Assembly (NCBI GenBank): GCA_039182125.1
Contig: JBCDCH010000001.1
Coordinates: 62,001 to 126,000 of the forward strand
DNA length: 64,000 bases
Direction: 5' to 3'
Source of the DNA: Planctomycetota bacterium
GTDB lineage: Bacteria > Planctomycetota > Phycisphaerae > Tepidisphaerales > Tepidisphaeraceae
A program made the position numbers and the translations under genes. The notes below the pieces were generated by a model. That model ran no database searches. It saw only the letters and a program-made list of their open reading frames with translations, and had not been told where the DNA came from. Positions 18,122-35,057 of the stretch are shown here, in pieces (positions within the stretch are counted from its first letter, which is position 1; every line of letters starts with the position of its first letter).

Positions 18122-18134
18122 GAAACACGGTTTC
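18122..18134. promoter_or_regulatory. Possible LacI-type operator upstream of the GH3 gene
   Basis: GAAAC-ACG-GTTTC shares both half-sites with the operator at 15775-15790 but has a three-base centre. It overlaps the stop codon of the TIR gene and lies about 65 bases before the GH3 start. Confidence 0.35.
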
Positions 18135-20724
18135 ACGAGTCCGCGAACAACCCCGGACAGATCACCCGAATCTCGGCGATGGCTTGTTCCTGCGTGTGGC
18201 CCATTTCCATGAGCAGAACCCCGTAGTTGTTGACCCCGGCGAGCAGGTGTGGGTGTTGGTGACCGGTCGAGCGTGTGAAGTTCATGAATATGCCGACCAT
18301 GCGCCGCATCAGCGGCTCGGCCTCGCCCAGCCGGTTGGTCGCCTGAAGCAGCTGTGCAAGGTTATTGAGATCGGTGGCCACTTCGGGGTGTTCCTTGCCG
18401 TAGCTGGTCTCGTCGATCGCTAACGCACGCCGCATGAGCGGCTCGGCCTCGCTTAGCCGGTTGGTGTCCTGAAGCAGCTGCGCAAGGTTGTTGAGTCGGA
18501 TGGCCACGTTGGGGTGGTCCTTGCCGTAGCTGGTCTCGTCGATCGCTAACGCACGACGCATGAGCGGCTCGGCCTCGTCCAGCCGGTTGGTCGCCTTAAG
18601 CAGCAGTGCAAGGTTGTTGAGTCGGATGGCCACGTTGGGGTGATCCTCGCCGTAGCTGGCCTCGTCGATCGCCAAGGCCCGCTGCATGAGCGGCTCGGCC
18701 TCGTCCAGCCGGTTGGTCGCCTGAAGCAGCGAAGCAAGGTTGTTGAGATCGATGGCCACTTCGGGGTGATCCTCGCCGTAGCTGGCCTCGTCGATCGCCA
18801 AGGCCCGCCGCATCAGCGGCTCGGCCTCGCCCAACCGGTTGGTCGCCTTAAGTAGCTGTGCAAGGTTGTTGAGATCGCGGGCCACGTTGGGGTGGTCCTT
18901 GCCGTAGCTTGCCTCGTCGATCGACAACGCGCGCCGCATGAGCGGCTCGGCTTCCGAGTAGCGCGCTTGGGTGAAGGCGTAGTTCGCAACATCGGTCGTG
19001 AGTTCGCCTTGGACGTCCGAACCGGCCTGATCGCCTGCATGCTCAGCAAGCTGCAGGGCGTGAGGCTCGATTAAGCGCCAAACTGGCCAACCGGCAGGGT
19101 TGTTCAACACGGCTGGCGCAAATACCTGGAATATGTTCACCGTCGACTTAAACCACTCATCCGCCTGCTCCTCCGGCGTCTTGTGGCGTTCGACGGCCTG
19201 GGTGAGGTTGTGGATGGTGAAGCCTTGGCCGAGGTCACCGAGGCCGACGGCCTTGGCCATGGAGTAGTTCACGAGTTCGGTCTTGTAACCGCGGACGTCG
19301 TCTTCGTCGGGGGCTTCTTTGGTCGGCGTTTCGCCGGTGAGAAGCGCGCCGGCCGCCGCCAGGCCTTTGCCCTGCGCGCTGAACATCGCCAGCGGGATCG
19401 GCGTGGCGGCCAGCCAGGCGCACAGGCGTAGCAAGGCGCGGGCTTCGGGGGAGAGTTTTTCGATCGTGACGCGCCAGGTGGTGTAGACCGACGCGGGGTA
19501 GTCGGTGAAACCCTCAGCGTGTTCGCGGAGGGTGCGGGCCTGTGAGCGTTGGTAGAAGGCGAGGTAGTCGGCCATGCCGAAGCCGGGGCCTTCGTTGGCG
19601 ATGTAAGCGCCGGCGGCTTCGAGGGCCAGGGGGAAGTAGCCCAGCGCGCGGATCAACGTCATGCACGCGCGTCGCTCGTCCCTGTCGAGGTGGACGTACG
19701 GCTTGCCGGCGCGCTCGGCGAGGAGGTCGCGCGAGGGCCGACGGTCGAGGACGTCGAGGGTGATCATCTCTACATTGCCCGGCCACTTGGCGAAGCGTGA
19801 CGTGAGGATCGTGTGACAGCTGCCGCAGGTCGGGAGCCAGCTGCCCTCTTCGATAAGCATCGTGCCGTTGGGCTGCGGGAGTGTGATCTCGTACTTCAGT
19901 TCGTCCGGCCCCTCGGCGTTGTCGAGCACGAGCAGCCGCAGCGGCGCACCGGCCGGCAGCGGGCGGTGCAGTTCCTTCGCGGCGGCAAGGGCGAGTGTCG
20001 TCAAGTCGGTGCCGAGCTTCTGGTCGGGCCAGAGCTGGCGCGCGATGTCGGCGAACTGCGTCGTGATATCCCGCCGGCAATCGACCCAGAACACGTGCTG
20101 GTAAAGCCGCCAGTAGCGATGGACGAATTCGTTGGCGAGCGTGGTCTTGCCGATGCCGCCGAGGGAGGCGACGACCTCCGCGCGGCCCTGCGTGACGGCC
20201 GTGGTCGGGCTGCGGAAGAGCGCATCGATCATCGCGTTGAGCGTGTCTTCACGGCCTTGGAAGTGCGGGTTGGGCGGAAAGCCCGTCGTCGCCGTGCGGT
20301 CGGGGCGGACGGGCGGGTTGGCTTTGATCTGCTTGACGCGCTCGCGCACCAGTTCGATGAGCCGATCCCAGTCGTCTTGCTCGACGGTGCGGAAGTCGAT
20401 CGACTGCGCCTGGAACCGCCGCAGCGGCGGCGTGAACGACTCTTCCACCGTCCCTTCGAACAGCAGCGGGACGATCGCGTTGTGGACGTACGTCTCGTAG
20501 CAGGTCCAGCGCGAGTCGCCCCAGCGCGGGGTGAGGATCGGCAGCATCACGCGGCTGGCTTCGCAGCCGGCCTCGATCTCACGGTGCCAGTCGAGGCCGG
20601 GCTTGAGGCGGGCTTGGTCGAACCAGACCGAAAGCCCCGCCGCTTTGAGTTGATCGTGTACGGCTTGCGCGTACTCCCGGTCGGCAGACGCGTAGCTGAT
20701 GAAGACGTCGAAACCCTGTCCCAT
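18133..20724 (-). CDS. TIR-NB-ARC-TPR protein (STAND NTPase, NLR-like)
   Basis: 863 residues. Residues 1-~135 are a TIR domain (FDVFISYASADREYA); E77 in SRWTCYETY sits where the catalytic glutamate of NAD-cleaving TIR domains lies. The NB-ARC module begins at FQGRED (~156), with Walker A GGIGKTT at 189-195, Walker B LRLLVLDNAE at 262-271, ILTSRF at 306-311 and GYFPLALEAAGA near 362. From residue 591 there are five near-identical 42-residue kinesin-light-chain-like TPR units, then a diverged unit to the end. The layout matches bacterial NLR-like immune or signalling proteins, where a C-terminal sensor triggers TIR activity. It stands alone between sugar-hydrolase genes with no mobile element beside it. 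Domain calls are firm; a defence role is inference. Confidence 0.93.
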   Translation of the reverse strand: MGQGFDVFISYASADREYAQAVHDQLKAAGLSVWFDQARLKPGLDWHREIEAGCEASRVMLPILTPRWGDSRWTCYETYVHNAIVPLLFEGTVEESFTPPLRRFQAQSIDFRTVEQDDWDRLIELVRERVKQIKANPPVRPDRTATTGFPPNPHFQGREDTLNAMIDALFRSPTTAVTQGRAEVVASLGGIGKTTLANEFVHRYWRLYQHVFWVDCRRDITTQFADIARQLWPDQKLGTDLTTLALAAAKELHRPLPAGAPLRLLVLDNAEGPDELKYEITLPQPNGTMLIEEGSWLPTCGSCHTILTSRFAKWPGNVEMITLDVLDRRPSRDLLAERAGKPYVHLDRDERRACMTLIRALGYFPLALEAAGAYIANEGPGFGMADYLAFYQRSQARTLREHAEGFTDYPASVYTTWRVTIEKLSPEARALLRLCAWLAATPIPLAMFSAQGKGLAAAGALLTGETPTKEAPDEDDVRGYKTELVNYSMAKAVGLGDLGQGFTIHNLTQAVERHKTPEEQADEWFKSTVNIFQVFAPAVLNNPAGWPVWRLIEPHALQLAEHAGDQAGSDVQGELTTDVANYAFTQARYSEAEPLMRRALSIDEASYGKDHPNVARDLNNLAQLLKATNRLGEAEPLMRRALAIDEASYGEDHPEVAIDLNNLASLLQATNRLDEAEPLMQRALAIDEASYGEDHPNVAIRLNNLALLLKATNRLDEAEPLMRRALAIDETSYGKDHPNVAIRLNNLAQLLQDTNRLSEAEPLMRRALAIDETSYGKEHPEVATDLNNLAQLLQATNRLGEAEPLMRRMVGIFMNFTRSTGHQHPHLLAGVNNYGVLLMEMGHTQEQAIAEIRVICPGLFADS
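18325..18954 (-). repeat. Five tandem 126-bp repeats encoding TPR units
   Basis: Five in-frame units of exactly 126 bp (42 codons) occur in tandem in the TIR gene. Units differ at a few positions only (for example EASYGKDHPNVA against ETSYGKEHPEVA), at DNA as well as protein level. Such arrays can gain or lose whole units without breaking the frame. Confidence 0.92.
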
Positions 20725-20771: not shown

Positions 20772-20815
20772 AACAACGCAAGCGCGTTCGGATCACCGAA
20801 CGCGCTTGCGTTGTT
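20772..20815 (-). terminator. Strong hairpin terminator after the GH2 gene
   Basis: A perfect 20-bp stem with an ATCA loop lies between the GH2 stop codon (20843) and the TIR start (20724). On the minus strand it is followed by a weak T-rich run (GTTTGTAGG). It should end GH2 transcripts and insulate the TIR gene. Confidence 0.75.
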
Positions 20816-32889: not shown

Positions 32890-34494
32890 ATGCGTCGAGC
32901 ATTGAAGCTTTTGTCCGTCTTCGTAACGCTCACGCCGGTCTGGCTGGTCCTGGCATGGCTGGTGTGGACGTTCGCCGCAACCCGCGCGATGGAGGCCGGG
33001 CACCAACGCCTGCTCGATGCCGACTTCGGATTCGACGTGGTGACCGCCCAGCAACGCTTGGGCGACATCCCCGACGACCGCAACGCGGCACCGATCATCG
33101 ACAAGGCCGTGCAGTCACTCGTGCTCGAAACCGCCGCCATGCGTGAGACTTATTGCAGCGACCTACATCTCGTTTCCTTGCAAGACGAACTCTCTCAAAC
33201 GCCGCAGGAGCAGACGGAGATGTTACGGGTGGCCGAGATCGCGACATACATCGACGCCGGGCTGACTTCCGAGCAGGCGATCGTCGCGGTCGCAGAGCAT
33301 GGGTTTGCGACGACGGTGTACCCGAGCAGTTGGCAGGCCGCGGTCGTCGCCGTCGACGACAACTCAGCAGCTCTTCAAGAGCTCTTCCCACTTGAACAAC
33401 TGGCCGAGGGTCATCGCGTCGAAGCACGTCGGCCGCATCCGTATCGCAATCTCATTTCGGTGATGGAGATGATCGACGCGCAGCTGCCGCATCTTGAGGC
33501 CGTTGGCGAATTGAACCGACTCGTGTGGATGTCGGCCGCCTTGAAGTGGCACGACGGCGACCACGCCGACGCGCTTGCGACAATTCGATTGATCGAGTTT
33601 CACGCCCAGGCCTTAGGCAGTTCAACACACGTTTGGCTCGACGGGGTTTACGCGCTCAGTTCGCACACGGTGGCGGCGGAACGTGTCGCCGAACTGCTGC
33701 CTTGGGTCGATCTGTCGGACGCTTCGGTTTGTGCCGAGGCCGAGATTTGGTTGGCCATGTTGCTCGATGACGATCCGATTAACGTCGCGTTGACCAACGC
33801 CATCGCCGGCTCAACAGCCGTGGCACAAACGAAGCTCCGTCACGACGACGCGACGGCGTTTGGGGTTGTCGGCCGACCGGCCCACCGACAAAGCGCCGCC
33901 GACCTCGCCGACTACGCCATCGAGTTGAAGCAGGCGTTGGATCAAGCGGGGACAATGGCCGAAACCGAGGCCAAACTTCCGCCCGAACCCGAGAGTTGGT
34001 ACGGCACCATCGCGTACATCATGGCGAATCCGGTGTACGGCCGACATGCGGCAGAGATGCGGTTTCGGTCCGAGCGAACGCGCTTGCTCGCCGCGACGGT
34101 CATCGCAACCTCGCTGTATCGAAACGAGCACGGCGACTGGCCCGAATCGCTCTCCGACTGTGTGCCGGACTACTTGCCGGTCGAGGCGATCAACCCCATG
34201 ACCGGCACACCGATCCGCTACAGCTCCGGCGACGAGGTCGATCCCCGTCCACGCGTTTGGACCGTCGGCCCGGACGGAGAAGATGACGGCGGGCGTGCGC
34301 CGGTCGACGATCGTGACAGCGATGCTGACAACGTCCGTTATCTCGACTCTGGCCCGCCGCCACCACGCACCTGGTGGGTCGCTACGCACCGTGACTCCGC
34401 CGGTGTTACAATCGCCCCATGGAGCAGCCGGTCCCGACCAACAAGCGCTACACATGGGAGGAGTATCTCGCGTTCGAGGAGAGCTCACCGGTGA
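32890..34494 (+). CDS. Membrane-anchored protein of unknown function
   Basis: 534 residues from the ATG at 32890; in-frame upstream starts lack support. One N-terminal membrane helix (LLSVFVTLTPVWLVLAWLVW) is followed by a helical soluble region. Near the end, RTRLLAATVIATSLYRNEHG and DWPESLSDCVPDYLPVEAIN form a pattern seen in planctomycete proteins with a pilin-like C-terminal part. The last ~40 residues are low-complexity (SRSRPTSATHGRSISRSRR) and overlap the Uma2 gene by 76 bases, so the true end may be earlier and a late frameshift is possible. Function unknown. Confidence 0.8.
   Translation: MRRALKLLSVFVTLTPVWLVLAWLVWTFAATRAMEAGHQRLLDADFGFDVVTAQQRLGDIPDDRNAAPIIDKAVQSLVLETAAMRETYCSDLHLVSLQDELSQTPQEQTEMLRVAEIATYIDAGLTSEQAIVAVAEHGFATTVYPSSWQAAVVAVDDNSAALQELFPLEQLAEGHRVEARRPHPYRNLISVMEMIDAQLPHLEAVGELNRLVWMSAALKWHDGDHADALATIRLIEFHAQALGSSTHVWLDGVYALSSHTVAAERVAELLPWVDLSDASVCAEAEIWLAMLLDDDPINVALTNAIAGSTAVAQTKLRHDDATAFGVVGRPAHRQSAADLADYAIELKQALDQAGTMAETEAKLPPEPESWYGTIAYIMANPVYGRHAAEMRFRSERTRLLAATVIATSLYRNEHGDWPESLSDCVPDYLPVEAINPMTGTPIRYSSGDEVDPRPRVWTVGPDGEDDGGRAPVDDRDSDADNVRYLDSGPPPPRTWWVATHRDSAGVTIAPWSSRSRPTSATHGRSISRSRRAHR
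34407..34412 (+). promoter_or_regulatory. Predicted leaderless -10 element of the Uma2 gene
   Basis: TACAAT (five of six consensus bases) lies six bases before the ATG at 34419, inside the 3' end of the preceding gene. Confidence 0.4.
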
Positions 34495-35057
34495 AGCACG
34501 AGTTTCACGACGGCAAGCTCGTACCGATCCAATGGATCGGAGATGGACCCGCGCCCGAAGGAATGGCGGGAGGAACCGAGAATCACTCGTCAATCTCGAT
34601 CGGTGTCTCGAGCACACTTCGCACCGCCCTGCGAGGTAAACCGTGCAAGGTCCACGGCAGCGAGCTGAAGCTTCAAGTCCCCGCAGCGCTTCGGGGCTAC
34701 TACCCGGACGCTATGATTATCTGTGGCGACACGGAGTACCCGCCGGACGACAAGCATCGCACCAGCGTGCTGAACCCGCGTGTCATCGTGGAAGTGCTCA
34801 GCGACTCCACCAGTGACTTTGATCTTGGAGAGAAGTTCGACCACTACCGACTTGTCGAGTCACTTCAAGAGTATGTCGTGATCAGTCAGACCGAACCACG
34901 GATTCGGGTGTTTCGACGCAACGATGATGGCACGTGGACGTTCGACGTTGCGGTAGGCTTGGACGCAACGGCCCGATTGGACTCGGTCGAGGTCGACCTA
35001 CCGCTGGCGGAGGTTTATGCCGACGTGGAGTTCGACAAGTCGGACGCTAAGGCCTGA
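34419..35057 (+). CDS. Uma2-family (DUF820) putative endonuclease
   Basis: 212 residues. Typical features are YTWEEYLAFEESSPVKHEFH at the N terminus, the PD-(D/E)xK-like core GYYPDAMIICGD, and NPRVIVEVLSDSTSDFDLGE with the conserved EVLS and the DLGEKFDHYR turn. The family has a restriction-endonuclease-like fold; its role in cells is not known, and copies are abundant in cyanobacteria and planctomycetes. The last 43 bases overlap the 3' end of the convergent flavoprotein gene. Confidence 0.92.
   Translation: MEQPVPTNKRYTWEEYLAFEESSPVKHEFHDGKLVPIQWIGDGPAPEGMAGGTENHSSISIGVSSTLRTALRGKPCKVHGSELKLQVPAALRGYYPDAMIICGDTEYPPDDKHRTSVLNPRVIVEVLSDSTSDFDLGEKFDHYRLVESLQEYVVISQTEPRIRVFRRNDDGTWTFDVAVGLDATARLDSVEVDLPLAEVYADVEFDKSDAKA

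What the first reader, a model, noticed from the sequence alone, without database searches (positions are those of the whole stretch)
18133..20724. NLR-like TIR-NB-ARC-TPR protein inside a polysaccharide-degradation region
Seen: TIR with the glutamate at the catalytic position (E77), an intact NB-ARC ATPase (GGIGKTT, LVLDNAE) and a C-terminal TPR sensor array in one chain. Known: bacterial STAND proteins with TIR effectors act in antiphage defence by NAD depletion, and others have signalling roles. Inference: a single-gene immune or signalling switch. It stands alone, with its own strong insulator hairpin upstream and no phage or mobile genes beside it, so it is not in an evident defence island.
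Basis: partly seen in the sequence, partly recalled or inferred. Interest (0 to 1): 0.7.

Follow-up and report, generated by a model that had tools for sequence, protein, structure and literature searches.

The report
Bacterial NLR-type immune receptor with TIR
This bacterial gene encodes a plant- and fungus-like immune receptor in one chain: a predicted NAD-destroying TIR head, an ATP-driven switch, and a repeat-built sensor whose near-identical units differ mainly where a ligand would bind.

Summary
Observation confirmed. The ORF at 18133-20724 (minus strand, 863 aa) is TIR + NB-ARC + five 42-aa kinesin-light-chain-type TPRs plus a degenerate cap. The TIR aligns with the solved NADase AbTIR at WTxYE (E77). 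The NB-ARC is missed by Pfam on this sequence alone. It is secured by a family profile (Roq1, AfsR, Apaf-1), all key motifs, and an AlphaFold2 model (Apaf-1 Z 29, NRC1 Z 25).

The best reading is an intracellular conflict receptor: ligand binding in the TPR groove, ATP-driven oligomerisation, TIR NADase activity. Close homologues share no neighbour gene. Related chassis carry TIR, DUF4062, trypsin-like or no head. Some more distant relatives sit beside phage portal, terminase and integrase genes or a SIR2 gene. No activity was measured; strain-level presence could not be tested.

Their variation concentrates at canonical TPR ligand-groove positions, as in fungal NB-ARC-TPR NLRs. Near-identical units occur on deeply divergent NLR backbones in another genus (units up to 90% identical, NB-ARC 21%). 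The upstream hairpin is most simply the GH2 gene's terminator. FxSxx-COOH membership was tested and not met.

The parts
18133..20724 (-). TIR-NB-ARC-TPR protein, 863 aa
   Evidence: ORF and translation; domains; AlphaFold2 mean pLDDT 81
20320..20715 (-). TIR domain, residues 4-135
   Evidence: PF13676 E 3.6e-22; TIR-only model, SARM1 TIR Z 15.8, RUN1 Z 15.3, SPARTA TIR Z 15.4
20494..20496 (-). Codon of E77, predicted catalytic glutamate in S71-R-W73-T-C-Y-E77
   Evidence: Aligned with AbTIR WTNYE; invariant in both TIR alignments made here
19135..20277 (-). NB-ARC (AP-ATPase) region with winged helix, residues 150-530
   Evidence: Family profile to Roq1, AfsR, Apaf-1; model vs Apaf-1 Z 29.4 over 428 residues, NRC1 NB-ARC Z 24.9
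20140..20160 (-). Walker A GGIGKTT, residues 189-195
   Evidence: G190, G192, K193 invariant in A1
19915..19935 (-). Walker B region around D268 (LLVLDNAE)
   Evidence: L264 and D268 invariant in A1
19210..19212 (-). H505, MHD-like histidine of the winged-helix subdomain
   Evidence: Nearly invariant in A1, invariant in A3; MHD role is inference
18322..18951 (-). Five 42-aa kinesin-light-chain-type TPR units (residues 592-801), predicted sensor with variable groove residues
   Evidence: Tandem repeat; KLC1 match E 9e-40, Z 25.2; unit analysis
18196..18321 (-). Degenerate sixth TPR unit, probable C-terminal cap (residues 802-843)
   Evidence: Unit register and low identity to the other five; helices 799-820 and 827-840 in the model
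20772..20815 (-). Perfect 20-bp stem, 4-nt loop, after the GH2 gene; probable GH2 terminator, not part of the receptor gene
   Evidence: Fold z -5.3 against shuffles

Best explanation
It is a bacterial NLR: a STAND receptor of the AP-ATPase (NB-ARC) class with a TIR head. Shown by sequence and model: intact TIR with the NADase-type glutamate, intact NB-ARC motifs, and a KLC-type TPR superhelix of near-identical units whose differences concentrate at groove positions. Inferred: at rest the NB-ARC holds nucleotide and the TIR is kept apart. A non-self or stress-related protein or peptide binds along the concave TPR groove; nucleotide exchange drives oligomerisation; TIR domains pair and cleave NAD+, giving abortive infection or a nucleotide signal. 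The sensor is renewed by exchange between repeat units (concerted evolution) while groove residues vary, and similar TPR cassettes appear on otherwise divergent NLR backbones. The location among carbohydrate genes is most likely incidental.
For: TIR: PF13676 and AbTIR alignment through WTxYE; TIR-only model vs SARM1, RUN1, SPARTA. Switch: family profile hits Roq1 over TIR+NB-ARC E 2.7e-37 and Apaf-1; model vs Apaf-1 Z 29.4 and NRC1 Z 24.9. Sensor: KLC TPRs, several solved with cargo peptides. Within-array DNA identity 0.874 vs 0.749 to the homologous array, nearest unit always in the same array. Variation concentrates at TPR positions 2, 9, 12, 13, 33: permutation p 0.004 here, 0.03 and 0.008 in two other arrays, first of 42 register shifts when combined, positions from PMC1261162. 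Effector change: TIR, DUF4062, trypsin-like or none on related NB-ARC-TPR chassis, including a DUF4062-type paralogue in the same genome (L053). Conflict context of relatives: SIR2_2 gene directly after a TIR-NB-TPR homologue (L088); NB-ARC relatives near terminase and integrase (L089) and portal (L095). No conserved neighbour among close homologues; patchy in the family.
Against: No defence genes lie next to the gene here, and its codon usage is native (GC3 0.845), so it is not a recent arrival. No full-length PADLOC model fits. No activity, ligand or phage data. Non-enzymatic TIRs (MyD88, TRR-2) score as high by fold. Overall pN/pS between units is below 1 (0.10/0.21), so positive selection is not shown, only concentration of change at the groove. 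The three repeat arrays are few, and two of them (window, L043) are closely related.
Confidence: 0.72

Rival explanations
1. A STAND regulator of the neighbouring polysaccharide genes (MalT/AfsR-like): the TPRs sense a sugar-related signal and the protein controls GH2/GH3/GH10 expression.
For: It sits between GH2 and GH3 genes on the same strand, 69 bp from GH3. AfsR, an NB-ARC-TPR transcription factor, is a strong profile hit.
Against: The N-terminus is TIR, with no DNA-binding domain found. No window neighbour is found beside L043 or L053; only a weak GH10 hit lies about 7 kb from the L045 gene. A LacI regulator is already present.
Confidence: 0.08
2. The TIR is a signalling or scaffolding head (no NAD depletion): it makes a nucleotide messenger for a distant effector or recruits partners by TIR-TIR contact.
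For: Bacterial TIRs such as ThsB make messengers (established knowledge; Ofir et al. 2021, in the reference list of PMC12881547). Scaffold TIRs have the same fold.
Against: E77 and W73 are kept. No SIR2/SLOG partner is adjacent; STALD was not found in the genome, but that search's controls were silent.
Confidence: 0.3
3. Peptide-coupled AP-ATPase of an FxSxx-COOH/ternary conflict system (fxsT).
For: NF040586 FxSxx_TPR is the best full-length NCBIfam match, 274.5 bits; TIR-AP-ATPase-TPR genes occur with such systems in actinobacteria (PMC7159879).
Against: Below the curated 300-bit cut-off; no FxsB over its cut-off in the genome; no peptide, peptidase or vWA gene seen beside it.
Confidence: 0.03

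Closest known systems
[quoted passage not shown] Dyrka et al. 2014, PMC4986451)
   Same: NB-ARC plus KLC-type TPR units of high internal identity; variable sites on the concave face; swapped N-terminal effectors; concerted evolution.
   Different: Bacterial; TIR head instead of lipase-like; positive selection and allele polymorphism not tested here.
Plant TIR-NLRs (Roq1, RPP1)
   Same: TIR then NB-ARC, alignable along the whole stretch (profile E 2.7e-37).
   Different: TPR sensor instead of LRR; bacterial host; no EDS1-type pathway expected.
FxSxx-COOH system TPR protein (NF040586, fxsT)
   Same: NB-ARC + TPR alignable over residues 151-853; TIR-bearing versions are described (PMC7159879).
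   Different: Below the family cut-off; partner FxsB absent over cut-off; no peptide system seen.
Avs and bacterial NACHT (bNACHT) antiphage STAND proteins
   Same: Single-chain sensor-switch-effector STAND logic (from general knowledge).
   Different: AP-ATPase class, not called as NACHT; no PADLOC full-length match.

Membership tests
TIR NADase domain | TIR fold | tested here: met
   PF13676; model Z 13-16 to TIRs
TIR NADase domain | Catalytic glutamate in WxxxE | tested here: met
   W73-T-C-Y-E77 aligned with AbTIR; E77 invariant in both TIR alignments made here
TIR NADase domain | NAD+ cleavage | not testable with these tools
   Needs an enzyme assay
AP-ATPase / NB-ARC STAND | Walker A, Walker B, T-S/T-R and GxP motifs, winged helix with conserved H | tested here: met
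   Invariant columns in A1 and A3
AP-ATPase / NB-ARC STAND | Homology of the whole NOD to solved NB-ARC proteins | tested here: met
   Family profile and fold place it with Roq1, Apaf-1 and NRC1. Pfam's single-sequence NB-ARC model does not fire on this protein but does on most homologues
NLR (effector-NOD-repeat tripartite) | N-terminal effector, central NOD, C-terminal superstructure repeats | tested here: met
High-internal-conservation NLR | Near-identical repeats homogenised within the array | tested here: met
   Within 0.874, between 0.749 DNA identity; nearest unit always in own array
High-internal-conservation NLR | Variable sites on the ligand-facing surface | tested here: met
   Groove enrichment p 0.004; rank 1 of 42 register shifts. 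Positions from PMC1261162, not measured on coordinates
High-internal-conservation NLR | Positive selection and repeat-number polymorphism among strains | not testable with these tools
   No same-genus genome held
FxSxx-COOH system TPR protein (NF040586) | Score over curated cut-off | tested here: not met
   274.5 of 300 bits
FxSxx-COOH system TPR protein (NF040586) | FxsB radical SAM partner in the genome | tested here: not met
   Best 72 bits against cut-off 370
Thoeris (ThsA/ThsB) | TIR protein paired with a SIR2-SLOG effector | tested here: inconclusive
   No neighbour identified as such; STALD not found but controls silent
DGR-diversified STAND sensor | Reverse transcriptase and template repeat matching the gene | tested here: inconclusive
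   One RT in the genome on another contig (C76); no long match between its locus and this gene. Other template sites were not searched

The most novel reading that the evidence does not exclude
Bacterial TIR-NLRs of this planctomycete-like family keep a shared pool of KLC-type TPR units, shuffled within arrays and passed between NLR backbones bearing different effectors. Groove residues vary, so the sensor repertoire evolves like that of fungal incompatibility receptors, without a diversity-generating retroelement.
Probability: 0.4. Interest if true: 0.68.

Novelty: new member of a known kind. Interest (0 to 1): 0.48.

Why it matters
TIR-AP-ATPase-TPR proteins are known in bacteria, but to my knowledge none of this group has a tested ligand. 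This one gives a compact single-gene case in which the likely ligand surface can be named residue by residue. If units and cassettes are exchanged as the comparison suggests, bacteria and fungi have reached the same way of renewing an NLR sensor, and it could be tested by swapping TPR arrays in a laboratory strain.

Tried and rejected
Synteny test: GH3 homologues in the family are mostly 32-45% identical and in other contexts, and no same-genus genome is held, so an empty site could not be shown. Regulator-of-polysaccharide idea: no conserved carbohydrate neighbour. FxSxx membership: fails the score cut-off and FxsB. DGR: no long match between the only RT locus found and the gene. Recent horizontal arrival: codon usage native. 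Phage collection: no relative; plasmids: only distant relatives. TIR-only scan of viral contigs impossible, no conserved stretch. Single-protein scans of genome contigs and viral contigs gave TPR-only relatives, the L088 record itself or nothing. Hairpin as a repeated element: no excess of copies in the window. Four-gamete conflict (31 of 51 site pairs here, 29 of 43 in L043) fits exchange between units but could partly be repeated single changes; the script for one search stopped before the L089 count. pN/pS below 1, so positive selection is not claimed.

Full report
The observation. The ORF at 18133-20724 on the minus strand encodes 863 aa. Pfam finds TIR_2 at residues 7-122 (E 3.6e-22) and TPRs from about 590 (E 1e-59), but does not call NB-ARC on this sequence alone. 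The NB-ARC identity was therefore tested separately. Homologues from the same family and phylum were aligned (A1, 22 sequences); G190, G192, K193, L264, D268 and T308 are invariant. A profile of A1 against the PDB hits the plant TIR-NLR Roq1 continuously over TIR and NB-ARC (E 2.7e-37), AfsR (E 8e-37), RPP1 and Apaf-1. Most homologues pass the Pfam NB-ARC cut-off themselves.

Structure. AlphaFold2 with eight sequences gave mean pLDDT 81, pTM 0.64. The NB-ARC region matches Apaf-1 (Z 29.4, 428 residues) and the NRC1 NB-ARC (Z 24.9, 327 residues); the C-terminal part matches kinesin light chain TPRs, solved with cargo peptides (Z 25). Foldseek also ranks a solved STAND-TPR protein, 6mfv, and RPP1 near the top. 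The TIR was modelled alone from four sequences (mean pLDDT 77) and matches SARM1 (Z 15.8), RUN1 (Z 15.3) and SPARTA (Z 15.4) TIRs, but also non-enzymatic TIRs, so the fold alone does not prove activity. The sequence adds that W73-T-C-Y-E77 aligns with WTNYE of AbTIR and that E77 is invariant in both TIR alignments.

Where its relatives are. No same-genus genome is held; all close relatives are family level. The nearest is G014 (L043), 44% identical over its full length, and the pair is the smallest well-supported group holding the window's NB-ARC (100/99). Among 26 family genomes, 13 have any TIR_2 match. The same NB-ARC-TPR chassis carries TIR, DUF4062-type (including a paralogue on contig C7 of the same genome, L053), trypsin-like, or no N-terminal domain; one viral-contig relative begins with what reads as an HNH-type segment (L090, read by eye, not tested by Pfam). 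On the NB-ARC tree the TIR label needs five changes, though well-supported branches force only one. Close homologues have no common neighbour. Relatives in viral contigs include L089 (trypsin-like NB-ARC-TPR near a terminase and an integrase), L095 (NB-ARC beside an SPP1-type portal gene), and L088 (TIR-NB-TPR with a SIR2_2 gene overlapping its end by 4 bp). L089 and L095 are the ones shown beside phage genes by Pfam.

The sensor. Residues 592-801 are five units of exactly 42 aa, a 126-bp tandem repeat with 89% matches. Mean identity between units is 87% DNA and 84% protein. To the homologous units in L043 it is 75% DNA, and each unit's nearest relative lies in its own array. Codons are homogenised within arrays: the D/R alternation at unit site 25 (counted from 0 at AEPLM) is GAT/CGA here and GAC/CGC in L043. 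This is concerted evolution that keeps amino-acid alternatives. Variable positions include canonical TPR positions 2, 9, 12, 13 and 33; the known concave, most variable set is 2, 5, 9, 12, 13, 33, 34 (PMC1261162). Mean entropy at the groove set is 0.77 against 0.19 elsewhere, permutation p 0.004; L043 gives p 0.03 and L089 p 0.008. The true register ranks first of 42 circular shifts in the window and L089 arrays and third in L043. Mapping is by TPR numbering, not by coordinates of the model.

Sensor cassettes on other backbones. The window's unit at residue 718 is 90% identical in protein and 81% in DNA to a unit of L044 (genus g4), while the NB-ARC domains are 21% identical; L045 and the DUF4062-headed L046 show the same imbalance. 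Along L044 identity jumps from about 10% to 70-100% at the first shared unit. Exchange of TPR cassettes or strong shared constraint would both give this; exchange is favoured by the sharp boundary but not proven.

Known counterparts. Fungal NLRs show the same pattern, including a Podospora NB-ARC-TPR receptor modelled on kinesin light chain with variable and selected sites on the concave face (PMC4986451), and concerted evolution of sensor repeats (PMC12222747). TIR-AP-ATPase-TPR proteins are described in bacterial conflict systems (PMC7159879). The FxSxx-COOH membership was tested and not met.

Setting. The neighbours are GH2, GH3, LacI, GH10, prepilins, OEP, aldose epimerase and rhamnosidase. 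The 20-bp hairpin at 20772-20815 lies just past the GH2 stop and is best read as that gene's terminator; no sigma-70-like promoter was seen. Codon usage is native, so the gene is a settled resident.

Verdict. An intact bacterial TIR-NLR, very probably a conflict receptor. NADase action, trigger and phage defence are inferred. Its added interest is the sensor: homogenised units with groove-focused variation, a pattern the papers read here describe for fungal NLRs. Caveat: if this is a short-read assembly (131 contigs), the repeat number could be under-counted, although the units differ enough (83-91% DNA identity) to be resolved by ordinary reads.

Noticed in passing
L095:1644-5343 and L096:2409-6108: A 640-aa NB-ARC protein gene lies beside an SPP1-type phage portal gene in two viral contigs, so an NLR-class protein sits within a phage structural module.
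   Followed up: partly
L088:1261-4850: A TIR-NB-ARC-TPR gene overlaps by 4 bp a following SIR2_2-domain gene, two potential NAD-consuming proteins in one unit.
   Followed up: partly
L092:1421-6863: A TIR-NB protein with a long C-terminal region of beta-propeller-like look, beside a ParB-N4/N6 DNA methyltransferase fusion in a viral contig.
   Followed up: no
L053:9224-11572 (G000:C7): The same genome has a second NB-ARC-TPR gene with a DUF4062-type head, alone on its strand between unrelated genes.
   Followed up: partly
L044, L045, L055 (genome G003): One 7.5-Mb relative holds at least three TIR-NB-TPR genes and many TPR-only ORFs with KLC-type units, a possible reservoir for repeat exchange.
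   Followed up: partly
20772-20815: Perfect 20-bp hairpin with a weak U-rich tail just after the GH2 stop; the simple terminator scan did not list it.
   Followed up: partly
20724-18133 (minus strand), residues about 277-301: The ATPase domain has an extra stretch of roughly 20 residues (ITLPQPNGTMLIEEGSWLPTCG) before the LTSR motif that most viral-contig relatives lack.
   Followed up: no
34419-35057: A Uma2-family gene (putative endonuclease fold) in the window; unrelated to the receptor.
   Followed up: no
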